DNA of 64,000 nt. It comes from Agromyces sp. H66. Its GTDB lineage: Bacteria; Actinomycetota; Actinomycetes; Actinomycetales; Microbacteriaceae. This document shows positions 25,828 through 35,922 of the stretch, piece after piece. Location of the stretch: NCBI RefSeq assembly GCF_004959775.1, contig NZ_SJZG01000001.1:496001-560000 (forward strand). Direction: 5' to 3'. The notes below the pieces were generated by a model, which saw only the letters and a program-made list of their open reading frames with translations, searched no databases and was not told the origin of the DNA. Both the position numbers and the translations under genes were made by a program. Each line of letters begins with the position of its first letter. Position 1 is the first letter of the stretch.

Positions 25828-26994
25828 TCAGAGCTGGTGGCCGAGCTTGTACTCGCCCTGCTTCCACTCCGGCATCGAGGACTCGCCCTCCTCGGGGCGC
25901 GTGTAGGAGAACCCGTCGGCACCGATGGTCACGGCCATCTCGCTGGCGTCGGTGCGGGCGACGACCTCCTTCGGGTTGCCGTCGAGGTCGAGCACGAGCG
26001 AGGCCTCGGTGTACCACGAGGGCACGACCGGGTTGCCCCACCAGTCACGGCGCTGGTTGTCGTGCACGTCCCACGTGACGACGGGGTTGTCGGGGTCGCC
26101 CGTGTAGTAGTCCTGCGTGTAGATCTCGACGCGGTGGCCGTCGGGGTCGCGCAGGTAGAGGTAGAACGCGTTCGAGACGCCGTGGCGCCCGGGACCGCGC
26201 TCGATGCGGTCGCTCTGGCGCAGCGCGCCGAGCTTGTCGCAGATCGCGAGGATGTTGTGCTTCTCGTGCGTCGAGAACGCGACGTGGTGCATGCGGGGGC
26301 CGTCGCCGCCGGTCATGGCCGTGTCGTGCACGGTCGGCTTGCGGCGCATCCACGCGGCGTACACGGTGCCCTCGTCGTCCTGGATGTCCTCGGTGACGCG
26401 GAAGCCGAGGTCCTGCATGAACTTCGTCGCGCGCGGCACGTCGGGGGTGACCTGGTTGAAGTGGTCGAGGCGCACGAGTGCGCCCGGAGTGTAGAGGTCG
26501 TAGCGCCACGCGAGGCGCTCGACGTGCTCGACGTCGTGGAAGAACTCGTAGGGGAAGCCCAGCGGGTCCTCCACGCGCACCGACTCGCCGATGCCCTTGG
26601 TGAAGCCCTCGGCGCGACGCTCGACGCGGCATCCGAGCTCCTCGTAGAAGGCCACGGCCCTGTCGAGGTCCTCCGGCGTGCGCACGCGGTAGGAGAACGC
26701 GGCCACGGCGGCGACCGGCCCCTTGCGCAGCACGAGGTTGTGGTGGATGAACTCCTCGAGCGACCGGAGGTAGACGACGTTCTCGTCCTCCTCGGTCACG
26801 GTGAGGCCGAGCACGTCGACGTAGAACTCGCGCGAGCGAGCCAGGTCGGTGACGACGAGCTCCATGTACGCGCAGCGCAGGATGTCGGGGGCGGGCGCCG
26901 ACGGCGTCGGGATCGGGTTGTCGGTGTGGATCGGAGCCTCCTGCGAAACGTAGAAGCCCGAAGAGGTGAGGGTCTTGTCTTCCTTGGCGGTCAT
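25828..26994 (-). CDS. hpaD: 3,4-dihydroxyphenylacetate (homoprotocatechuate) 2,3-dioxygenase
   Basis: A 388-residue extradiol dioxygenase of the vicinal-oxygen-chelate fold, which opens the ring of homoprotocatechuate next to the hydroxyls. Metal ligands fit His178 (LDHFNQ), a His of MHHVAF (236/237) and Glu290 (VEIYTQDYY). The sequence resembles the Brevibacterium Fe and Arthrobacter Mn enzymes in length and in the long C-terminal extension (WDVHDNQRRDWWG). The metal, Fe or Mn, cannot be told from sequence. It is the last gene of the hpaG-gntR-hpaE-hpaD unit, 55 bp after hpaE. AAGGAC precedes the ATG. Confidence 0.92.
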   Translation of the reverse strand: MTAKEDKTLTSSGFYVSQEAPIHTDNPIPTPSAPAPDILRCAYMELVVTDLARSREFYVDVLGLTVTEEDENVVYLRSLEEFIHHNLVLRKGPVAAVAAFSYRVRTPEDLDRAVAFYEELGCRVERRAEGFTKGIGESVRVEDPLGFPYEFFHDVEHVERLAWRYDLYTPGALVRLDHFNQVTPDVPRATKFMQDLGFRVTEDIQDDEGTVYAAWMRRKPTVHDTAMTGGDGPRMHHVAFSTHEKHNILAICDKLGALRQSDRIERGPGRHGVSNAFYLYLRDPDGHRVEIYTQDYYTGDPDNPVVTWDVHDNQRRDWWGNPVVPSWYTEASLVLDLDGNPKEVVARTDASEMAVTIGADGFSYTRPEEGESSMPEWKQGEYKLGHQL

Positions 26995-27049: not shown

Positions 27050-28585
27050 TCAGCGCGGGTCCGGGTCGTCGAGGTCGGTCTCGTCGTGGTGCTCCTGCTT
27101 GCCGAACGTGGGGTTGTGCACGGCACCGAGCGTGATGTGCACCGCCTGCTGGTCGGTGTAGAAGTCGATCGAGCGGTAGCCGCCCTCATGGCCGAGGCCC
27201 GAGGCCTTGACGCCGCCGAACGGCGTGCGGAGGTCGCGGACGTTGTTCGAGTTGAGCCACACCATGCCGGCCTCGACCGCCTGCGAGAAGTTGTGCGCAC
27301 GCTTGAGGTCGTTGGTCCAGATGTAGGCGGCGAGCCCGTACTTCACGCCGTTCGCGAGCTCGAGCGCCTCCTCCTCGGAGTCGAAGGGCGTGATCGCGAC
27401 GACCGGCCCGAAGATCTCCTCCTGGAAGATGCGGGCGTCCTTCGGGACATCCGCGAACACCGTCGGCGCGACGTAGTTGCCCGTCGGGAAGCCCTCGGGC
27501 CGGCCGCCGCCGGCGACGAGTCGGCCCTCGGTCTTGCCGATCTCGACGTAGCTCATGACCTTCTCGTAGTGCTCGGGGTGCACGAGCGCGCCGACCTCGG
27601 TCTTCGGGTCGTGCGGGTCGCCCACGATGACGCGCTTGGCCTGTGCGGCGTACCGCTCGACGAACTCGTCGTAGATGGCACGCTCGACGAGGATGCGGCT
27701 TCCGGCCGTGCAGCGCTCGCCGTTCAGCGAGAACACGCCGAAGATGGTCGCGTCAACGGCCGCGTCGAGGTCGGCGTCGGCGAAGACGACGGCCGGGCTC
27801 TTGCCGCCGAGCTCCATCGAGAGGCCCTTGAGGTAGGGCGCGGCGTTGCCGAAGATGATCTGCCCGGTTCGGCTCTCGCCGGTGAAGGAGATGAGCGGGA
27901 CATCCGGATGCTTCACCAGCGCGTCGCCCGCCTCCTCGCCGAGGCCGTTGACGAGGTTGAAGACGCCCTTCGGGAGGCCCGCCTCCTCGAAGATGCCGGC
28001 CCACAGCGACGCCGACAACGGTGTGAACTCAGCCGGCTTCAGCACGACCGTGTTGCCGGTGGCGAGGGCCGGACCGAGCTTCCACGACTCGAGCATGAAC
28101 GGCGTGTTCCACGGCGTGATCAGGCCGGCGACGCCGATCGGCTTGCGGTTCACGTAGTTGATCTGGCGGCCGGGCACCTTGTACGTGTCGTCGGCCTGCG
28201 CGACGATCAGGTCGGCGAAGAACCGGAAGTTCTCGGCGGCCCGGCGGGCCTGCCCGAGCGCCTGGGTGATCGGCAGGCCCGAGTCGAACGACTCCAGCTC
28301 GGCGAGCTGCGCGTCGCGCGACTCGACGAGGTCGGCGATCCGGTGCAGCACGCGCGAACGCTCGCGCGGCAGCATCCGCGGCCACGGGCCCTCCGTGAAG
28401 GCGCGCTTCGCGGCGGCCACGGCGCGATCGATGTCGGCCTTCTGGCCGGCGGCCGCCTGCACGTACGTCTCGTTCGACACGGGGTCGAGCACGTCGAACG
28501 TCTCGCCGCCGATCGAGTCGACGGACTCGCCGTCGATGTAGTGACGGATGCGGTCGGGGAGCCCCTCGGGGATGTGATGCGTCAT
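27050..28585 (-). CDS. hpaE: 5-carboxymethyl-2-hydroxymuconate semialdehyde dehydrogenase
   Basis: A 511-residue aldehyde dehydrogenase that oxidises the ring-cleavage product of HpaD with NAD. Catalytic residues are Glu258 (MELGGKSP) and Cys292 (GERCTAGS); ITPWNTP contributes to cofactor binding. The substrate call rests on its place between the GntR gene and hpaD and on its resemblance to HpaE proteins. The ATG at 28585 is preceded by GAGGAAG. A His/Asp-rich tail (EHHDETDLDDPDP) is unusual but probably harmless. Confidence 0.92.
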   Translation of the reverse strand: MTHHIPEGLPDRIRHYIDGESVDSIGGETFDVLDPVSNETYVQAAAGQKADIDRAVAAAKRAFTEGPWPRMLPRERSRVLHRIADLVESRDAQLAELESFDSGLPITQALGQARRAAENFRFFADLIVAQADDTYKVPGRQINYVNRKPIGVAGLITPWNTPFMLESWKLGPALATGNTVVLKPAEFTPLSASLWAGIFEEAGLPKGVFNLVNGLGEEAGDALVKHPDVPLISFTGESRTGQIIFGNAAPYLKGLSMELGGKSPAVVFADADLDAAVDATIFGVFSLNGERCTAGSRILVERAIYDEFVERYAAQAKRVIVGDPHDPKTEVGALVHPEHYEKVMSYVEIGKTEGRLVAGGGRPEGFPTGNYVAPTVFADVPKDARIFQEEIFGPVVAITPFDSEEEALELANGVKYGLAAYIWTNDLKRAHNFSQAVEAGMVWLNSNNVRDLRTPFGGVKASGLGHEGGYRSIDFYTDQQAVHITLGAVHNPTFGKQEHHDETDLDDPDPR

Positions 28586-28604: not shown

Positions 28605-29315
28605 TCAGTCGGTGGTGGAGGCGAGCGCCGGTTCGGCGGTCGCGGATGCCGCCGGGGAGGGATGCTTGTGCTCGGCGGTGAACGCGAGCACCGCGTCGAG
28701 GGTGGCGGTGCGGTGCGCACGCGCCGCGAGTTCGATCTCGAGCGGCTCGGCGCCCGACTCGATGAGCTCGACGATGTGCTCGTGCTCGGCCACGGACTCG
28801 GCGGCGCGTCCGGGCACGAAGCTGAACGACGTGTCGCGCAGCAGCTTCAGCCGGCTCCAGCCGCGATGCACGAGGTCGAGGATGTGCGGGTTCGGGCACG
28901 CCTCGTAGAGCGCCGCGTGGAACTCGATGTTCAGCGCGGTGAAGCGGTGGGGGTCGAAGTCGTCGAGCAGCCGCCGCATCCGCTCGTTGATGCGTCGGGC
29001 GTCCTGCAGCTGCTCAGCGGTGAGGTACGGCGCCGAGAGCGAGGTGGCCGCACCCTCGACGATCGAGAGCGTCTGCATGGTGTGCAGGTACTCGGTCTCC
29101 TTGATGAGCGCGACCTGGGCGCCCACGTTGCGCTCGAACGTGACGTATCCCTCGGCCTCGAGGCGGCGGATCGCCTCGCGCACGGGAACGACCGAGACGT
29201 CGAGCTCGCGCGCGATCTGGCCGAGCACGAGCCGGTAGCCCGGCACGAACCGGCCGTCGTCGATGCGCTCGCGGAGGTAGTCGTAGGCCTGCTGCGACTT
29301 GCTCGTGGCGGTCAT
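28605..29315 (-). CDS. GntR-family (FCD) regulator of the homoprotocatechuate genes
   Basis: A 236-residue repressor-type protein. The N-terminal winged helix (residues 8-72) has LGQIARELDVSVVPVREAIRRL. The C-terminal FCD domain carries FHAALYEACPN and a later AEHEHI, the His-containing metal/ligand site of this subfamily. It lies inside the operon, overlapping the upstream fusion gene by ATGA, so the pathway genes and their regulator rise together. Likely targets are the two near-identical boxes at 30794 and 32517. Confidence 0.88.
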   Translation of the reverse strand: MTATSKSQQAYDYLRERIDDGRFVPGYRLVLGQIARELDVSVVPVREAIRRLEAEGYVTFERNVGAQVALIKETEYLHTMQTLSIVEGAATSLSAPYLTAEQLQDARRINERMRRLLDDFDPHRFTALNIEFHAALYEACPNPHILDLVHRGWSRLKLLRDTSFSFVPGRAAESVAEHEHIVELIESGAEPLEIELAARAHRTATLDAVLAFTAEHKHPSPAASATAEPALASTTD

Positions 29316-30775
29316 GAGTTCCGCCCCTGCGCCTGCTCGTAGCGGGCCCGCCACTCGGCGTTCATGGGGAACAGCCCGTCGACGGATGCCCCGGACGCGA
29401 CCTGGTCGGCAACCCAGGCGTCCTCCCGCTCCTGCGTCTCCGCCTCGGCGAGCACCTCCTCGACGAGGGCGGGCGGGATCACGATGACGCCGTCGCCGTC
29501 GCCCACGATGACATCACCGGGCTGCACGGCGGCGCCGCCGCACGCGACCGTCACGTCGGTCTCCCACGGAACGTGCCGCCGGCCGAGCACCGAGGGGTGG
29601 GCGCCCTGCGAGAACACGGGGATCTCGAAGCCGCGCACGGCGTCGAAGTCCCGCACGCCGCCGTCGGTCACGATGCCGGCGGCGCCGCGCACCTGGGCGC
29701 GGAGCGCGAGCACGTCGCCCACGGTGCCGGTGCCGCGCTCGCCGCGTGCCTCGACCACGAGCACCTCGCCGGGCAGCACGGTGTCGAACGCCCGCTTCTG
29801 CGCGTTGAACCCGCCGCCGTGGGACGCGAAGAGATCGGGGCGGAAGGGGATGAACCGCAGCGTCTTCGCGCGGCCGACGAGGCGGTCGCCGTCGTGGTTC
29901 GCCGAGACGCCCTCGATGAAGATGTCGTGATAGCCGCGCTTGCGGAGCGCGACCGAGAGCGTCGCGACGCCGACGCCGGCGAGGCGTTCGCGCAGGTCGT
30001 CGGTGAGCTCGAATCCGGGTTCGGCGGCGGGCAGGCCCGCGGCCTCTCGCGAGCCCCACGCCTCCTCGCGCTGCAGGTCGTCGACCGCCGGCTTCGTGCC
30101 GAAGTCGCCGAACGACACGGTGCCCTCGGTGATGGTGGTCACGAGCCGGCCGCTCGACGGCGTGCCCGGGGCATCCGGTGCGTCCACCTCGACCTCGACG
30201 ACGTCGCCGGGCACGACGACCGACGAGCCTGCCGGCGTGCCGGTGAGGATGACGTCGCCGGTCTCGAGGGTCATCAGCTGCGAGAGGTCGGCGATCAACT
30301 GGCCGAACGGGAACAGCAGCGTGTCGCTGGTGTCGTCCTGCACGAGTGCGCCGTTGACCCACGTGCGCACGCGCAGGCCCGCCGGGTCGACGGCTGCTGC
30401 GGGGATCGCGCGCGGTCCGAGGGGCGTGAAGCCGTCGCCGCCCTTCGAGCGCACGTTCGAGCCCTTGTCGGCCGCCCGCAGGTCGTAGAGGCCGAAGTCG
30501 TTGGCGGCGGTGACGGATGCCACGTGCGTCCAGCCGTCGTCGGGGGAGACGCGCCGCGCGGGCTCGCCGATGACGAGCGCGATCTCGCCCTCGAAGGCGA
30601 GCAGTTCGGTGCCGGCGGGGCGCTCGAGGGTGCCGCCGGTGGCGGCGACCGATGACGACGGCTTCAGGAAGTAGCTCGGTGCGGCGGGCGTGCGGCCGCG
30701 TTGCGCCGCGCGCGACCGGTAGTTGAGGTGCACGGCGATGATCTTGCCGGGGGTGGCGATCTCGTCGGTGGTCAT
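29312..30775 (-). CDS. FAH-domain decarboxylase/isomerase fused to an RraA-like domain (HpaG-type)
   Basis: A 487-residue fusion. Residues 1-235 form a fumarylacetoacetate-hydrolase fold with metal ligands Glu62, Glu64 (FEGEIALV) and Asp93 (AANDFGLYD), and TGTPAG near 178. HpaG proteins of this fold decarboxylate and isomerise homoprotocatechuate intermediates. Residues 255-487 form an RraA/HMG-aldolase-like domain with DGGVRD (Arg375-Asp376, metal/phosphate site) and GDGDGVIVIP. RraA-fold enzymes include aldolases and oxaloacetate decarboxylases. The acidic residue usually found three positions after RD appears to be Ala. The ATG at 30775 follows a leader of about 21 nt. The fused domain may replace a missing pathway step. 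Confidence 0.8.
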   Translation of the reverse strand: MTTDEIATPGKIIAVHLNYRSRAAQRGRTPAAPSYFLKPSSSVAATGGTLERPAGTELLAFEGEIALVIGEPARRVSPDDGWTHVASVTAANDFGLYDLRAADKGSNVRSKGGDGFTPLGPRAIPAAAVDPAGLRVRTWVNGALVQDDTSDTLLFPFGQLIADLSQLMTLETGDVILTGTPAGSSVVVPGDVVEVEVDAPDAPGTPSSGRLVTTITEGTVSFGDFGTKPAVDDLQREEAWGSREAAGLPAAEPGFELTDDLRERLAGVGVATLSVALRKRGYHDIFIEGVSANHDGDRLVGRAKTLRFIPFRPDLFASHGGGFNAQKRAFDTVLPGEVLVVEARGERGTGTVGDVLALRAQVRGAAGIVTDGGVRDFDAVRGFEIPVFSQGAHPSVLGRRHVPWETDVTVACGGAAVQPGDVIVGDGDGVIVIPPALVEEVLAEAETQEREDAWVADQVASGASVDGLFPMNAEWRARYEQAQGRNS

Positions 30776-30793
30776 TGACGTCCTCGTCTCGTT

Positions 30794-30815
30794 GTATCCG
30801 AAATCATATACGATC
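30794..30815 (-). promoter_or_regulatory. GntR box A over the hpaG-operon promoter
   Basis: GTATCCGAAATCATATACGATC (22 bp, quoted in part: GTATC..GAAATCATATA) matches box B at 18 of 22 positions. On the minus strand it contains TATGAT (30803-30808), a strong -10 box for the fusion gene, so bound repressor would block the promoter. Confidence 0.6.
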
Positions 30816-30839: not shown

Positions 30840-31682
30840 TCAGTAGCTCGCGCGCGGCGCGGTGGCGGGCCCAGCCGCACCGCCGTCCGCACCATCGCCG
30901 CGCCGGGCGATGAAGCGATCGGCGAGCGCCTCGGAGGCCCTGGCCAGCATCGCGACATCCGCTCCGACGAGCACGAAGGCGGTGCCGGCATCGAGGTACC
31001 GGTCGGCGACCGCGGGCGCGAAGGCGTTCACGCCGGCGGGCTTGCCGGCGGCCGCGGCCGCGCGGATGCAGTGCTCGACGGCGGCCACGACGTCGGGATG
31101 CTCCTGTTGGCCGAGGAACCCCATCGAGGCCGCGAGGTCCGACGGGCCGACGAAGATCGCGTCGACGCCGTCGACCGCGAGGATCTCCTCGACGTGCTCG
31201 ACCGCGGCCACGGACTCGATCTGCACCGTGAGCGAGATCGTGCCCGAGGCATCCGCCAGGTAGTCGGGCACCCGGTTCCAGCGCGACGCACGCGCGAGCG
31301 CACTGCCCACGCCGCGCACGCCGGCCGGCGGGTAGCGCACGGCGCGCACCATCTCGGCGGCGTGCTCGGCCGAGTCGACCATGGGCACGAGCAGGTTCTG
31401 CACGCCGAGATCGAGGTACTGCTTGATCGTCACCACGTCGCCGTACGGCGGGCGCACGAGCGGCGTGGCCGGGTAGGCGGCCACCGCCTGGAGCTGGGCG
31501 AGGATCGACTCGAGCGAGTTGGGGGAGTGCTCGCCGTCGATGAGCAGCCAGTCCAGGCCGCTGCCCGCGGTGATCTCGGCGATGAGCGGGCTGCCGGAGC
31601 ACACCCACATGCCGATGAGGGGACGGTCGGATGTCGCGAGCCGCTCGCCGAACGTCGGCGGCAGGGTCAATCGAATCGGCAT
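30840..31682 (-). CDS. hpaI: 4-hydroxy-2-oxoheptane-1,7-dioate aldolase
   Basis: A 280-residue class II aldolase of the HpcH/HpaI family. It cleaves the last C7 intermediate to pyruvate and succinate semialdehyde. Expected active-site residues are His52 (DGEHSPN), Arg77 (RPPYGD), and the metal ligands Glu156 (QIES) and Asp182 (GPSDLAASMG). The ATG overlaps the end of hpaH by 16 bp. The tail after residue 260 is Gly/Ala-rich. It is co-transcribed with hpaH from the promoter at box B. Confidence 0.92.
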   Translation of the reverse strand: MPIRLTLPPTFGERLATSDRPLIGMWVCSGSPLIAEITAGSGLDWLLIDGEHSPNSLESILAQLQAVAAYPATPLVRPPYGDVVTIKQYLDLGVQNLLVPMVDSAEHAAEMVRAVRYPPAGVRGVGSALARASRWNRVPDYLADASGTISLTVQIESVAAVEHVEEILAVDGVDAIFVGPSDLAASMGFLGQQEHPDVVAAVEHCIRAAAAAGKPAGVNAFAPAVADRYLDAGTAFVLVGADVAMLARASEALADRFIARRGDGADGGAAGPATAPRASY

Positions 31683-32452
31683 GTGATCGCCCCCAGCTGT
31701 CCGTAGTCGGCGTGCACCGTGTCGCCCCGCTCGACCCACATGGGCCGCGTGAACGACCCCGCGAGGATGATCTCGCCGGCGCCGAGCGACTGCCCGTGCT
31801 GCGCGAGCTTGTTCGCGAGCCACGCGACGCCCATCGCGGGGTGGCCGAGCACCGCGGCCGCGACGCCGGACTCCTCGATGGTCTGGTTGCGATAGAGGAG
31901 GGCGGAGACCCAGCGGAGGTCGACGGCGTCGACCTTCACGGGATTGCCGCCGACGACCATGGCGCCCATGGCCGCGTTGTCGGAGATGGTGTCGACGATC
32001 GTGCGCCCGGCCATCTCGATGTGCGAGTTCAGGATCTCGAGCGCGGGCACGACGTAGGCGGTGGCGTCGAGCACGTCGAAGATGGTGGTGTCGGGCCCGG
32101 CGAGCGGCTTCGCGAGCACGAACGCGAGCTCGACCTCGATGCGCACGTTCGAGAACCGGTCGAACTCGACGGTGGCGCCCGACTCGATGACCATGTCGTC
32201 GAAGATCACGCCGTAGTCGGGTTCGGTGATGCCCGTGGCGACCTGCATGACCTTCGAGGTGAGGCCGATCTTGCGGCCCACGAGGCGCGCGCCCCGCGCG
32301 GCGCGGCGCTCCGCCCAGAGCTGCTGCACGGCGTAGGCATCCTCGACCGTCATCTCGGGGTGCCGGGCCGTGAGCAGGGGGACGATGGATCGATCCCGAT
32401 CGGCGGCGACGAGTTCGTCGGCGATCGCGGCGATGCGTGCTGGTTCGAGCAA
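31667..32452 (-). CDS. hpaH: 2-oxohept-3-ene-1,7-dioate hydratase
   Basis: A 261-residue hydratase of the FAH superfamily/MhpD group, adding water to the dienoate before the HpaI step. Visible family elements are GRKIGLTS, the metal-binding IEVELAFVL and the late stretch AGSFTRPMWVE. I place the start at TTG 32452, preceded by GGAG at 7-nt spacing. The in-frame ATG at 32530 overlaps the predicted -10 box of this very transcript and would add 26 residues unlike the family. The start remains an inference. Confidence 0.88.
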   Translation of the reverse strand: MLEPARIAAIADELVAADRDRSIVPLLTARHPEMTVEDAYAVQQLWAERRAARGARLVGRKIGLTSKVMQVATGITEPDYGVIFDDMVIESGATVEFDRFSNVRIEVELAFVLAKPLAGPDTTIFDVLDATAYVVPALEILNSHIEMAGRTIVDTISDNAAMGAMVVGGNPVKVDAVDLRWVSALLYRNQTIEESGVAAAVLGHPAMGVAWLANKLAQHGQSLGAGEIILAGSFTRPMWVERGDTVHADYGQLGAITCRFD

Positions 32453-32516
32453 GCGTTGGCTCCACTTCGTTGTCGAGGACTCGCCTCGATCGTATTCGAT
32501 CTGGTCGTCAGATGTG

Positions 32517-32540
32517 GTATCTGAAATCATATATAATGAT
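32517..32540. promoter_or_regulatory. GntR box B and divergent promoters (hpaH / MHS carrier)
   Basis: The 22 bp from 32517 match box A at 18 positions (GTATC-T-GAAATCATATA). The segment 32526-32540 is a palindrome ATCAT-ATATA-ATGAT. It holds TATAAT (32532-32537) as a consensus -10 box for the rightward carrier and TATGAT on the minus strand for hpaH, so one bound repressor could shut both. Confidence 0.62.
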
Positions 32541-32607
32541 GCTCGCGCTCATCCGGACCTGCGATGAGCGGTCCCCGACAGCGACACGACAGAGGAGTCG
32601 ACGCGCC

Positions 32608-33987
32608 ATGACGACGACGTCCACCACCGCACCATCAACCGAAGCCAGGCAACGCGAACTCCGTCGCGTCGCCTTCGCGACCGTGATCGGCACCACCATC
32701 GAGTGGTACGACTTCTTCCTGTACGCGAGCGCCGCCGGACTCGTCTTCGGTGCGCTCTTCTTCGCCCCGGCCGGCCCCGAGTTCGCGACCATCCTCTCGT
32801 TCGCGACGGTCGGCGTGAGCTTCCTCTTCCGCCCGCTCGGCGCGTTTCTCGCCGGGCACTTCGGCGACAAGATCGGCCGCAAGGCGATGCTCGTCGTCAC
32901 GCTCATCCTGATGGGCGCCGCGACCACCCTCATCGGCGTCCTGCCCACGTACCAGCAGATCGGCATGGCCGCGCCCATGCTGCTCGTCCTGCTCCGCATC
33001 CTGCAGGGCCTGTCGACCGGTGGCGAGTGGGGCGGCGCCGTGCTCATGGCCGTCGAGCACGCCCCCGACGGCAAGCGCGGGCGCTACGGCGCGTTCCCCC
33101 AGATCGGCGTGCCGATCGGCCTGCTCCTGGCCTCGGGGGTGCTCGCGCTCATGACCGGCGTCGTCTCGCCCGGCGACGCGTTCCTCGAGTGGGGCTGGCG
33201 CATCCCGTTCCTGCTGAGCTTCGTGCTCATCATCGTCGGCATCATCGTGCGCCGCGCGGTCGACGAGAGCCCGGTCTTCAAGGAGATCTCCGAGAAGAAG
33301 GAGAAGGCGAAGACCCCGATCCTCACCCTGTTCCGCAAGCACTGGCTGCTGGTCGTGCTCGCAGCGCTCACCTTCGCCGGCAACAACGCCGCCGGCTACA
33401 TGACCACGGGCGGATACCTGCAGAACTACGCCACGACGCCGATCGCCGACGGCGGGCACGTCGGCATGGAGCGCACGCCCGTGCTCCTCGCCGTCGCCGG
33501 GGCATCGGTGGTGTGGCTCATCGTGACGTTCGCCGCGGGCGTGGTCTCCGACCGCATCGGCCGGCGCAACACCTACGTCATCGGCTGGATCGCCTTCCTC
33601 GCGACCGTGTTCCTGCTCTTCCCGCTGGCCGACACCGGCAACCCGTGGCTCCTCTTCCTCGGCGTCTCCCTGTTCGCCATCGGCAACGGCTTCACCTACG
33701 GCCAGCAGGCCGCGTACTTCACCGAGCTGTTCCCGGCCTCGATCCGGTACTCGGGCGTCTCGATCACCTACGCGATCGGCGCCATCATCGGCGGCGCCTT
33801 CGCGCCCACCATCGCGGCGTGGCTCGTGCAGTCCACCGGCACCGCGACCTCGGTCGCGTTCTACATCGCCGGAATCATGGTGGTCGCCTTCGCCGCGACC
33901 CTGCTGCTCCGCGACCGCACGGGCATCCCGCTCGGTCCCGACCACGAAGCGGAGCAGTCGGTGCGGCACTTCGCCTGGCAGAAGTAG
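32608..33987 (+). CDS. MFS transporter, metabolite:H+ symporter (MHS) family
   Basis: A 459-residue, 12-helix carrier. TTIEWYDFFLYA in helix 1 and the GDKIGRKAML loop are hallmarks of the MHS group (ShiA, KgtP, ProP). These take up shikimate, dicarboxylates or aromatic acids with protons. Divergent position and shared box B with hpaH point to uptake of a hydroxyphenylacetate-type aromatic acid. AGAGGAG precedes the ATG, and the 64-nt leader begins after a consensus TATAAT. The strong hairpin at 34007-34046 follows the gene. Confidence 0.88.
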   Translation: MTTTSTTAPSTEARQRELRRVAFATVIGTTIEWYDFFLYASAAGLVFGALFFAPAGPEFATILSFATVGVSFLFRPLGAFLAGHFGDKIGRKAMLVVTLILMGAATTLIGVLPTYQQIGMAAPMLLVLLRILQGLSTGGEWGGAVLMAVEHAPDGKRGRYGAFPQIGVPIGLLLASGVLALMTGVVSPGDAFLEWGWRIPFLLSFVLIIVGIIVRRAVDESPVFKEISEKKEKAKTPILTLFRKHWLLVVLAALTFAGNNAAGYMTTGGYLQNYATTPIADGGHVGMERTPVLLAVAGASVVWLIVTFAAGVVSDRIGRRNTYVIGWIAFLATVFLLFPLADTGNPWLLFLGVSLFAIGNGFTYGQQAAYFTELFPASIRYSGVSITYAIGAIIGGAFAPTIAAWLVQSTGTATSVAFYIAGIMVVAFAATLLLRDRTGIPLGPDHEAEQSVRHFAWQK

Positions 33988-34067: not shown

Positions 34068-35720
34068 TCAGCGGCCGCGATTGACCGCGATCACCTCGTG
34101 CTGATAGGGCGCGATGACCCGCCCCGAGATGCGGCAGTCGAGCAGCAGGAACCGGCGCTCGGCGACCGGCTCGGCCGCCCAGGACGCGAGCCGGTCGAGG
34201 TCGGCGAGTTCGCGCACCACCACGCCCTCGGCACCGACGGCGTTCGCGAGCCCCGCGAAGTCGACCTCGGGGATGAGCATGGGCTCCTCGGCGTATCCCT
34301 TGAGCCCGTAGAGGTTCACCTCGGCGCCGTAGGCCGCGTCGTTCCACACCACGGCGATGCCGCGACCGGCGGCCGTGCGCACGGCGCTCTCGAGGTCGGC
34401 GAGCGCCATCAGGCCCCCACCGTCGCCCGTCGTGAGCACGATGGCCGCGTCGGGCTTCGCGGCGGCCGCGCCCGGCACGCTCGGCAGCCCGAGCCCGATG
34501 GACTGGAACGCGGTGCCGACCATGAGCATCCGGTCGGGCGCCGCCACCGGCCAGTACATGTTCGCCCACCCGATGAAGTGCCCGCCGTCGGAGACGACGA
34601 CGCGGTCCTCGGGCAGCAGTTCGCCGAGGCGGGCCGCGACGCGGCGTGGGTCGAGGCGACCGTCGGGGGCGACGTCGTCACCCGGGTGGAGCCGGCGCAG
34701 TGGGGCGAAGTCGACGGACTCGCGCCATCCGCTGGGCGCGGCGCCGGTGCGCTCGAGCCGGTCGGCGATCCCGGATGCCGCGAGTCGCGCGTCGCCGGCC
34801 ACGAAGTCGGTGACCGCGGGGTTCGTCGCCTCGGGGGCCAGATCGACCTGCACGACCCGCGTACCCGGCGCGAACAGCTGCCCGAACCGCGTCGTGAACT
34901 GGTTGAGTCCGGCGCCGAAGACGACCGCGACATCCGCCTCGTGCACGAGCGCCATCGCGTCCTCCTGGCCGAACCCTCCGGTGACGCCGAGATCGAAGCC
35001 CCGGTCGGGGAAGATCCCGCGCGCGAGCGCGGTCGAGGCCGTGACCGCGCCGGTCAGCCCGGCGAGCCGGGCGAGCGCGTCGCCCGCGCCCGCGAGCCAG
35101 GCGCCGCGACCGGCGAGGAGGAACGGTCGGCGGGCGACGGCGAGCAACTCCGCGACCGCATCGAGGCGGGCCGAGTCGGGCTCCAGCGGCGCAAGCAACG
35201 TCACCGTACGCAGTTCGTCGGCCGACGGGAGCTCACCGGCGTCGGCCGTGGCGAGGTCGTACGGAACGGCGAGCACGACGGGGGTTCGGTGGGCGAGCGC
35301 GTGCTCGATCGCCCGCACGGTCGTGGCCGCGGCATCCTCGCGCCCCGCCGTGAGCGTCGGCACGCCCGCGGCGGCGGCCATGGCCGCCTGGTCGACGTCC
35401 CAGGGGCGGACACCCGTCGTGGGCGCGTCGCCGACGACGAGCACGACCGGGATCCGTGCCTGGGCCGACTCGGCGAGCGCGGTCAACGAGTTGGTGAATC
35501 CGGCGCCGTACGTCGCGGTCGCCGCCGCGAGCCGGCCCGAGGCGCGGTAGTGCGCGTCGGCGGCCACCACGCCGCCGGCCTCGTGGCGGAGCGCGGTGTA
35601 CCGGGCCGAGGTGCGGTCGAGGGCGTCGAGGAGGGCGGCGTTGCCGTTGCCCATGACGCCGAAGACGTGGTCGACGTGGGCGGAGAGGGCGTGCGCGACA
35701 TGCGCGGAGACCGAGGCCAT
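34068..35720 (-). CDS. Thiamine-pyrophosphate enzyme, decarboxylase/lyase-like
   Basis: A 550-residue TPP enzyme. RHEAGGVV in the PYR domain supplies the activating Glu. GDGGGLM followed by WNDAAYGAEVNLYG in the PP domain is the TPP-Mg site. It shares the YGAEVNL motif with the protein at 12628-14223, suggesting a paralogous pair. Benzoylformate- and phenylpyruvate-type decarboxylases belong to this family. Its position beside the aromatic-acid genes and just downstream of a broken aldehyde dehydrogenase suggests a former 2-oxoacid to aldehyde to acid route. The product is inferred, not proven. AAGGAC precedes the ATG. Confidence 0.78.
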   Translation of the reverse strand: MASVSAHVAHALSAHVDHVFGVMGNGNAALLDALDRTSARYTALRHEAGGVVAADAHYRASGRLAAATATYGAGFTNSLTALAESAQARIPVVLVVGDAPTTGVRPWDVDQAAMAAAAGVPTLTAGREDAAATTVRAIEHALAHRTPVVLAVPYDLATADAGELPSADELRTVTLLAPLEPDSARLDAVAELLAVARRPFLLAGRGAWLAGAGDALARLAGLTGAVTASTALARGIFPDRGFDLGVTGGFGQEDAMALVHEADVAVVFGAGLNQFTTRFGQLFAPGTRVVQVDLAPEATNPAVTDFVAGDARLAASGIADRLERTGAAPSGWRESVDFAPLRRLHPGDDVAPDGRLDPRRVAARLGELLPEDRVVVSDGGHFIGWANMYWPVAAPDRMLMVGTAFQSIGLGLPSVPGAAAAKPDAAIVLTTGDGGGLMALADLESAVRTAAGRGIAVVWNDAAYGAEVNLYGLKGYAEEPMLIPEVDFAGLANAVGAEGVVVRELADLDRLASWAAEPVAERRFLLLDCRISGRVIAPYQHEVIAVNRGR

Positions 35721-35922
35721 GGAAGTCCTTCGAGACGGTGACGGAGCTGGGGAATCCGTGTGTGTCTCGCTCGAGCCCGCTCGTGGCGGTTCGGCTTCGT
35801 GCCCATTTTTCGAGCACCGGCGCTCACGGCGCCTGGACATCACGATTCTACCGGCTCCACCGGCGACGGCGGCCGGGTCGAGGACTCCCACCCCGTCCCG
35901 GCCGCCGTCGGCGATCGCCCGA

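What the first reader, a model, noticed from the sequence alone, without database searches (positions are those of the whole stretch)
29312..30775. FAH-RraA fusion in a homoprotocatechuate cluster that lacks hpaF
Seen: one 487-residue chain with an FAH domain (Glu62, Glu64, Asp93) and an RraA-like domain (Arg375-Asp376). Known: the classical pathway needs the HpaF isomerase and a two-part HpaG. No HpaF-like tautomerase gene is in the cluster. Inference: the RraA part may do the decarboxylation or isomerisation, giving a rearranged pathway.
Basis: partly seen in the sequence, partly recalled or inferred. Interest (0 to 1): 0.6.

Follow-up and report, generated by a model that had tools for sequence, protein, structure and literature searches.

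The report
Fused FAH-RraA enzyme in homoprotocatechuate breakdown
Many actinobacteria with genes for degrading tyrosine-derived aromatics carry one fused two-domain enzyme where other bacteria have separate isomerase and decarboxylase genes, which suggests an untested second way of running the middle of a textbook pathway.

Summary
Window 30775..29312 (minus strand) is one intact 487-aa gene: an FAH domain plus an RraA/aldolase-like domain, in a homoprotocatechuate cluster (hpaH, hpaI-like, fusion, gntR/FCD, hpaE, hpaD). The architecture is not new: it matches NCBIfam NF009399 (PRK12764), named only "fumarylacetoacetate hydrolase family protein".

The context is less familiar. Of 80 fusion loci kept by one capped scan, gntR is present in 79, hpaE in 78, hpaD in 75. 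CHMI (HpaF) was not found in 61 of 62 fusion genomes; the exception is weak and on another contig. The same search found it in 9 of 9 classical records. HpaG-C over its cut-off was found in 0 of 42. The fusion FAH is a clade apart from HpaG. It keeps the metal ligands, but differs from HpaG-C at three pocket positions, identically in 81 of 81 near relatives (distant fusions keep one). The RraA half keeps a D-x20-R-D aldolase motif in 81 of 81.

Best reading: the fusion replaces HpaG (and makes HpaF dispensable), with RraA decarboxylating the tri-acid and FAH isomerising. That split is inference; "RraA replaces HpaF" is the live rival. New variant of a known kind; no biochemistry.

The parts
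29312..30775 (-). FAH-RraA fusion gene, 487 aa (NF009399/PRK12764 family)
   Evidence: single open frame; NF009399 829 bits over residues 4-483, cut-off 444
30182..30745 (-). FAH domain, residues 11-198; metal ligands E62, E64, D93; K111; altered pocket R22, Q25, Y97
   Evidence: PF01557 E 2e-49; column comparison; 81 of 81 invariant
29480..29959 (-). RraA/aldolase-like domain, residues 273-432, with D354-x20-R375-D376
   Evidence: PF03737 E 3.7e-31; NF006093 subfamily over cut-off; 81 of 81 invariant
28605..29315 (-). GntR/FCD regulator; ATG at 29315 overlaps the fusion's stop codon (start chosen by me; the open frame begins at 29354)
   Evidence: PF07729, PF00392; start candidates
27050..28585 (-). 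hpaE, CHMS dehydrogenase (start chosen at ATG 28585; the open frame begins at 28720)
   Evidence: TIGR02299 662 bits, cut-off 638; start candidates
25828..26994 (-). hpaD, homoprotocatechuate 2,3-dioxygenase
   Evidence: TIGR02295 443 bits, cut-off 321
30840..31682 (-). hpaI-like aldolase
   Evidence: TIGR02311 325.5 bits, below cut-off 368.8
31667..32452 (-). hpaH, OHED hydratase (start uncertain; the open frame runs to 32530)
   Evidence: TIGR02312 360 bits, cut-off 351.5
30792..30810 (-). candidate operator TATATGATTTCnGATACnA before the fusion
   Evidence: 0 mismatches; 0 in 100 shuffles; one of two in the genome at up to 3 mismatches
32515..32533 (-). second copy of the candidate operator, before hpaH-hpaI
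32437..33987 (+). divergent MFS transporter, possible uptake (start uncertain)
   Evidence: PF07690/PF00083; a match in 37 of 80 loci

Best explanation
The fusion is an actinobacterial replacement for HpaG in the meta-cleavage of homoprotocatechuate, and its presence goes with no detectable HpaF. Between HpaE (which makes the tri-acid CHM) and HpaH or a DHDPS-type gene (taken to use the di-acid OHED), three changes are needed: CHM to OPET (tautomerisation), OPET to HHDD (loss of CO2), HHDD to OHED (isomerisation). I infer that the RraA half, a Mg2+ pyruvate-enolate enzyme of the HMG/CHA aldolase type, decarboxylates OPET, a vinylogous counterpart of oxaloacetate, giving the metal-bound dienolate HHDD; and that the FAH half, which keeps the metal ligands and a conserved lysine but not three residues that HpaG-C conserves, does the enol-keto isomerisations (HHDD to OHED, perhaps also CHM to OPET, which is also reported to proceed spontaneously). 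Fusion would keep the two sites together, as the OPETD-HHDDI complex does in Acinetobacter. Shown here: gene, linkage, no match to HpaF and HpaG, conserved sites. Inferred: every catalytic assignment. My estimates: the fusion covers this section of the pathway 0.85; this particular split 0.45.
For: Linkage: of the 80 loci that the capped scan kept, GntR is matched in 79, HpaE 78, HpaD 75, HpaI-like 73, HpaH 71; several loci end at contig ends. All 7 loci without an HpaI-like match carry a DHDPS-type gene in the cluster. The Rhodococcus NBC_00297 plasmid holds a putative hydroxylase (phenol 2-monooxygenase-like), fusion, gntR, hpaE, hpaD, hpaH, HpaI-type aldolase and an SSADH, with no other listed gene for the middle steps; P. 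aurescens pTC2 is alike, though hpaD is not listed in that incomplete table. HpaF: no match in own genome, 0 of 50, 0 of 10 plus one weak match in G383, and 0 of 2 fusion plasmids; control 9 of 9. HpaG-C over cut-off: 0 of 42 fusion genomes, 4 of 5 control records, 3 of 4 other actinobacterial clusters. FAH tree of 55 rows: 15 fusion rows in one clade (100/99), apart from HpaG-N, HpaG-C and the other actinobacterial FAHs. Pocket: R22/Q25/Y97 where HpaG-C has H/E/R. RraA motif aligned to HMG/CHA aldolase 3NOJ, D354/R375/D376 on its D102/R123/D124 by my count; that enzyme class decarboxylates oxaloacetate (PMC5065237, introduction). FAHD1 ketonisation is ascribed to a lysine, K123 (PMC8398924, passages). 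G106 carries an unfused RraA, equal to the fusion's in 26 of 28 compared pocket columns, near an over-cut-off HpaD and a DHDPS-type gene. OPETD plus HHDDI work without CHMI, more slowly, and form a complex (PMC12718150, sections).
Against: No paper found assays any member of this family. Alphaproteobacterial clusters pair HpaF with a single FAH that also has R at the R22 position, so that change alone does not show loss of decarboxylase activity, and by subtraction RraA there matches HpaF. Fusions of G383 and G278 keep E at position 25. The unfused sister FAH group shares R22 and works without a fused RraA. G106 has no over-cut-off HpaE beside its RraA and an unfused FAH elsewhere, so its pathway may differ. 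HpaG domain roles themselves rest on structure only. Other FAH paralogues exist in the own genome and could act. Tautomerase PF01361 is present in 13 of 35 fusion genomes examined, and a Rhodococcus ruber paper lists a 4-oxalocrotonate tautomerase in its homoprotocatechuate cluster (PMC6498646, passage). The model's domain arrangement is uncertain (pTM 0.53). The HpaI-like gene is below its family cut-off.
Confidence: 0.5

Rival explanations
1. The RraA half replaces HpaF: it tautomerises CHM to OPET on its metal, and the FAH half does both the decarboxylation and the HHDD isomerisation.
For: Five alphaproteobacterial clusters and one Deinococcus cluster hold HpaF plus one FAH in the run; the fusion clusters hold FAH plus RraA and no HpaF, so by subtraction RraA equals HpaF. 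HMG/CHA aldolase catalyses proton exchange on pyruvate (PMC5065237, passages).
Against: Three other actinobacterial genomes (G032, G056, G108) have HpaG-C with neither HpaF in the genome nor RraA in the stretch, so an HpaF substitute is not always needed, although G032 and G108 have a PF01361 tautomerase elsewhere; the fusion FAH lacks the HpaG-C pocket residues; CHM is reported to isomerise spontaneously. Gemmobacter and Rhizobium have a further FAH gene a few kb away.
Confidence: 0.22
2. The FAH half does all the chemistry; the RraA half is structural or regulatory, like RNase-binding RraA proteins.
For: Closest solved relative of the RraA half is S. coelicolor RraAS2 (5x15, TM 0.92 by target, 33% identity), titled an unusual member of the RNase ES inhibitor RraA family.
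Against: D354, R375, D376 and other pocket residues are invariant in 81 of 81; an unfused RraA sits near an HpaD gene in G106.
Confidence: 0.1
3. A separate FAH elsewhere in the genome performs the HpaG steps and the fusion acts on a side product or another substrate.
For: Eight weaker matches to the fusion exist in the own genome, six of them to the FAH half.
Against: None of the eight covers both halves; no HpaG-C over cut-off in the own genome; the fusion is in the hpa cluster in nearly all loci seen, and one of the genome's two candidate operator sites stands before it.
Confidence: 0.08
4. The RraA half is an additional pyruvate aldolase for 4-hydroxy-2-oxoheptanedioate.
For: HMG/CHA aldolase relationship.
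Against: An HpaI-like (73) or DHDPS-type (the other 7) gene is matched at 80 of 80 loci, if the latter is an aldolase of this pathway.
Confidence: 0.03

Closest known systems
NF009399 / PRK12764 (NCBIfam 'fumarylacetoacetate hydrolase family protein')
   Same: Full-length match in the same domain order, 829 bits against cut-off 444
   Different: The model names no reaction; a text search for PRK12764 found 0 papers
HpaG/HpcE (two FAH domains; OPET decarboxylase/HHDD isomerase)
   Same: Proposed same place in the pathway; the FAH half aligns best to the HpcE C-terminal half among solved structures
   Different: One FAH domain, not two; below HpaG-C cut-off (137 against 276 bits); separate clade; second domain is an unrelated family; pocket residues changed
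HMG/CHA aldolase, LigK/PcmE (PDB 3NOJ)
   Same: RraA family and D-x20-R-D alignment
   Different: Below LigK cut-off (84.5 against 304.5 bits); fused; the N324, Q326, K327, R399, H401 set is shared in full by 1 of 8 unfused relatives compared, that of G106
S. coelicolor RraAS2 (PDB 5x15)
   Same: Nearest solved RraA relative of the C-terminal half
   Different: Unfused, 33% identical, described in its PDB title as an unusual member of the RNase ES inhibitor family
HpaF/CHMI (PF02962)
   Same: Possible functional counterpart
   Different: No sequence match; not found in 61 of 62 fusion genomes

Membership tests
NF009399 / PRK12764 fusion family | Full-length score over curated cut-off with both domains | tested here: met
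   829 bits, residues 4-483, cut-off 444
HpaG (HpcE) | HpaG-C score over cut-off | tested here: not met
   137.3 against 276.4; 0 of 42 fusion genomes
HpaG (HpcE) | Second FAH domain or separate partner FAH gene in the cluster | tested here: not met
   One FAH domain; in the operon the only other FAH-family gene is hpaH
HpaG (HpcE) | H/E pair and R of the HpaG-C pocket | tested here: not met
   R22, Q25, Y97 instead
HpaG (HpcE) | OPET decarboxylase and HHDD isomerase activity | not testable with these tools
   needs assay
RraA/HMG-CHA aldolase superfamily | RraA-like fold | tested here: met
   PF03737 E 3.7e-31; Foldseek 5x15 TM 0.92 by target
RraA/HMG-CHA aldolase superfamily | D-x20-R-D metal/catalytic motif (motif name recalled; positions read here) | tested here: met
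   D354, R375, D376 in 81 of 81; aligns with 3NOJ
LigK/PcmE CHA aldolase | Equivalog score over cut-off | tested here: not met
   84.5 against 304.5
HpaF (CHMI) | PF02962 match | tested here: not met
   not among Pfam matches of the fusion; none in own genome

The most novel reading that the evidence does not exclude
An RraA-fold aldolase has been recruited to a new reaction, decarboxylation (or tautomerisation) of the tricarboxylate OPET/CHM, and fused to a re-tooled FAH isomerase, giving a one-protein substitute for HpaF plus HpaG across Microbacteriaceae and other actinobacteria.
Probability: 0.6. Interest if true: 0.65.

Novelty: new variant of a known kind. Interest (0 to 1): 0.52.

Why it matters
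Two Arthrobacter genome papers propose the homoprotocatechuate route and cite enzymology of the 1970s for Gram-positive bacteria (passages and reference lists); the A. arilaitensis paper lists eight candidate genes by locus tag and the Rue61a paper points to a supplementary table that I could not read, so I cannot say what they assigned to this gene. I found no paper that gives the fusion a reaction. If the reading is right, it assigns a function to a widespread family with only a generic name, adds a reaction to the RraA superfamily (members of which appear in public records as 'ribonuclease activity regulator RraA' or 'dimethylmenaquinone methyltransferase'), and gives a simple two-mutant test of which HpaG/HpaF step each domain performs.

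Tried and rejected
Chance, frameshift or misassembly: rejected, 80 near-full-length relatives in named contigs. Another tautomerase family in place of HpaF: PF01361 is not found in the own genome and is present in 13 of the 35 other fusion genomes examined; in the six G-numbered ones with a match (G008, G230, G237, G280, G347, G383) it lies on another contig or more than 200 kb from the fusion; so it is not a general substitute, though it could act in some. An unannotated small gene in the operon: rejected for the window, intergenic gaps are 64 bases or less. RraA as aldolase: see rivals.

The first CHMI search of relatives had a control that did not ring and the tool warned that this does not show absence, so classical plasmid records were searched as controls with the next genomes. 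Completeness of the 50 genomes is not told. In one search my HpaI query was in the wrong frame; the HpaI count there (30) is void and was redone. The RraA tree has long, poorly placed branches and I use only its residue table; it used 12 of the 80 loci. From the FAH tree I dropped 5 rows before building: four duplicates and L168, whose sequence holds unknown residues. Two annotated stretches (L163 Thermomicrobium, L164 Rhodococcus pseudokoreensis) had an HpaD-like gene but no hpaE in the stretch and are not counted in cluster types. G078 is counted among the four other actinobacterial clusters although its FAH reading frame looked broken. One fold model only; no use made of domain arrangement.

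Papers: PMC12718150, abstract, introduction (part 1 of 2) and two further sections read; PMC5065237, introduction and passages; PMC8398924, PMC12176266, PMC3534580, PMC6498646, PMC2991359, PMC7356986, passages; PMC13101518, searched for four terms, none found; others only as search listings. FAHD1 residue numbers are from PMC8398924; I compared them with this sequence from a recalled FAHD1 sequence, which is in none of the alignments. The DHDPS-type genes score best against TIGR02313 'HpaI-NOT-DapA' but below its cut-off, and over the dapA cut-off (L171, L165), so their role here is inferred.
Full report
WHAT IS THERE. The gene lies on the minus strand, 30775..29312, and encodes 487 residues without interruption. 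Residues 11-198 are an FAH domain and 273-432 an RraA-like domain. The whole chain matches NCBIfam NF009399/PRK12764 (829 bits, cut-off 444), so the domain order is already a catalogued family with a generic name. An AlphaFold model from 33 aligned sequences has mean pLDDT 84.3 but pTM 0.53, so the domains are usable and their arrangement is not. Foldseek matches the FAH half to HpcE (1i7o) and the RraA half to S. coelicolor RraAS2 (5x15, TM 0.92 by target length).

THE CLUSTER. On the minus strand, in order: hpaH, hpaI-like, fusion, gntR/FCD, hpaE, hpaD. HpaD, HpaE and HpaH exceed their NCBIfam cut-offs; the aldolase does not. Gaps are 64 bases or less, and the regulator's likely ATG overlaps the fusion's stop. 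A 19-base site, TATATGATTTCnGATACnA, stands before hpaH and before the fusion; at up to 3 mismatches these are the only two sites in the 4.2-Mb genome, and such a site lies within 300 bases upstream of the fusion match in 52 of 80 related loci. It is a candidate operator of the GntR protein, not a tested one. A 73%-identical counterpart of the putative hydroxylase of the Rhodococcus cluster is elsewhere in the genome.

HOW WIDESPREAD. In 396 Actinomycetota genomes drawn across the phylum, the own genome included, 12 hold the fusion over the family cut-off, among them the 9 of the window's own family in the list. In these 80 loci GntR is matched in 79, HpaE in 78, HpaD in 75, HpaI-like in 73, HpaH in 71; all 7 without an HpaI-like match carry a DHDPS-type gene in the cluster. 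In L171 such a gene scores best against TIGR02313 'HpaI-NOT-DapA', below that cut-off and over the dapA cut-off. One locus, L118, has the fusion, gntR and the DHDPS-type gene but neither hpaE nor hpaD in the stretch. Because the scan kept only the best 80, this sample leans to near relatives.

WHAT IS MISSING. CHMI (PF02962): none in the own genome at E <= 1; 0 of 50 of the 80 loci's genomes, the largest number one call takes; 0 of 10 further fusion genomes, 0 of 2 fusion plasmids, and one weak match (39.9 bits, cut-off 26.5) in G383, on a contig other than those of its two fusion copies. That is 61 of 62 genomes without a match. One search's control did not ring; one search included nine classical plasmid records, and 9 of 9 rang (E <= 3e-35). 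HpaG-C (TIGR02303): over cut-off in 0 of 42 fusion genomes, against 4 of 5 control records (the Rhizobium record missed) and 3 of 4 actinobacterial genomes with the other cluster type; four fusion genomes (G278, G383, G414, G423) have weaker FAH matches below the cut-off. The unrelated tautomerase family PF01361 is in 13 of 35 fusion genomes, not in the own one.

COMPARISON OF CLUSTERS. Type A (Azotobacter, Pantoea, Erwinia plasmids): HpaF with two FAH domains, as two genes or one 427-aa or similar HpaG. Type B (Gemmobacter, Aminobacter, Agrobacterium, Rhizobium, Ruegeria, and Deinococcus without hpaH/hpaI nearby): HpaF with one FAH in the run; Gemmobacter and Rhizobium have another FAH gene a few kb off. 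Type C: the fusion, no HpaF found. Type D (G032, G056, G108; G078 with a damaged-looking FAH frame): HpaE-like, HpaB-like, HpaD, one FAH (HpaG-C type in three), a DHDPS-type gene in the three stretches scanned for it (G032, G078, G108), no HpaF found and no RraA in the stretch. G106 has an unfused RraA, 52% identical to the fusion's half, with a DHDPS-type gene and an over-cut-off HpaD in the same stretch and no FAH there; its dehydrogenases are below the HpaE cut-off, and an unfused FAH of the sister group lies on another contig. A Streptomyces coelicoflavus plasmid has an unfused RraA with an HpaB-like hydroxylase, a VOC dioxygenase-like gene, an aldehyde dehydrogenase and a separate FAH. 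The two subtractions disagree: B against C suggests RraA = HpaF; D against C suggests RraA supplies something the type C FAH has lost.

RESIDUES AND TREE. The fusion FAH keeps E62, E64, D93 and K111, but at the positions where HpaG-C, the readable type D FAHs and Deinococcus have H, E and R it has R22, Q25 and Y97; these are identical in 81 of 81 sequences (window plus 80 loci). More distant fusions (G383, G278) keep E at position 25. Alphaproteobacterial FAHs have R, E and R there, so the first change alone is not diagnostic. HpaG-N/G1 lacks the two Glu ligands. The tree of 55 FAH sequences puts the 15 fusion sequences in one clade (100/99) with unfused actinobacterial FAHs as nearest relatives, apart from HpaG-C, HpaG-N and type D. 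So the FAH half is not a degenerate HpaG but another FAH lineage. In the RraA half D354, R375 and D376 are invariant in 81 of 81; R375 and D376 align with Arg-123 (enolate-stabilising, essential) and Asp-124 (metal-binding) of HMG/CHA aldolase.

MECHANISM. Class II pyruvate aldolases of this kind decarboxylate oxaloacetate through a shared pyruvate enolate (PMC5065237). OPET presents the same 2-oxo acid to a metal, with the leaving carboxylate one double bond further (established chemistry, my comparison). FAHD1 is proposed to tautomerise metal-bound enols with a lysine (PMC8398924, passages). In Acinetobacter, OPETD and HHDDI must be together for efficient decarboxylation, CHMI speeds it up, and CHM is said to isomerise slowly by itself (PMC12718150). 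I therefore favour RraA as decarboxylase and FAH as isomerase, at 0.45, within a 0.85 claim that the fusion covers this section of the pathway. RraA as HpaF substitute stays at 0.22.

NOVELTY. Searches for homoprotocatechuate with RraA, FAH/RraA/fusion/4-hydroxyphenylacetate, pathway and actinobacterial terms, PRK12764 and RraA/FAH decarboxylases showed me no paper assigning this fusion a reaction in the open-licence library; I read passages or sections of nine of the listed papers, and subscription papers and supplementary tables could not be searched. The architecture is known; the pathway role appears unassigned there. I call it a new variant of a known kind.

Noticed in passing
L160 9983-11056; L161 9962-11035: Pantoea and Erwinia plasmids carry an HpaD about 78% identical to the window's HpaD inside otherwise classical clusters with HpaF and double-FAH HpaG, which suggests transfer of hpaD between phyla.
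   Followed up: partly
L123 5445-15405: Streptomyces coelicoflavus plasmid with an unfused RraA between a VOC dioxygenase-like gene and a cupin, plus HpaB-like hydroxylase, aldehyde dehydrogenase and separate FAH: perhaps another ring-cleavage pathway using the same pair of folds.
   Followed up: partly
L105, L111, L114, L115, L116, L117, L118: Seven fusion loci have no hpaH or hpaI match and carry a DHDPS-type gene in the cluster instead, so the downstream hydratase/aldolase pair may also be exchangeable.
   Followed up: partly
L192, L193, L194, L195: The unfused FAH sister group sits in one stretch with an HpaE-like dehydrogenase and a GntR gene; in L193 a glutamine synthetase-like gene and a P450 lie between: an unassigned pathway.
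   Followed up: no
L172 and L173 (G383): One 11-Mb genome has two copies of the fusion, each with hpaE and hpaD matches nearby, on different contigs.
   Followed up: no
window 34068-35891: A TPP-dependent enzyme near the cluster, matched at 25 of 80 related loci, scores under all NCBIfam cut-offs shown; it could be an arylpyruvate decarboxylase feeding 4-hydroxyphenylacetate (guess).
   Followed up: no
PDB 4pfz (fold match): A Mycobacterium smegmatis structure titled 5-carboxymethyl-2-hydroxymuconate delta-isomerase matches the FAH half, so the isomerase name is used for an FAH-type protein as well as for CHMI.
   Followed up: no
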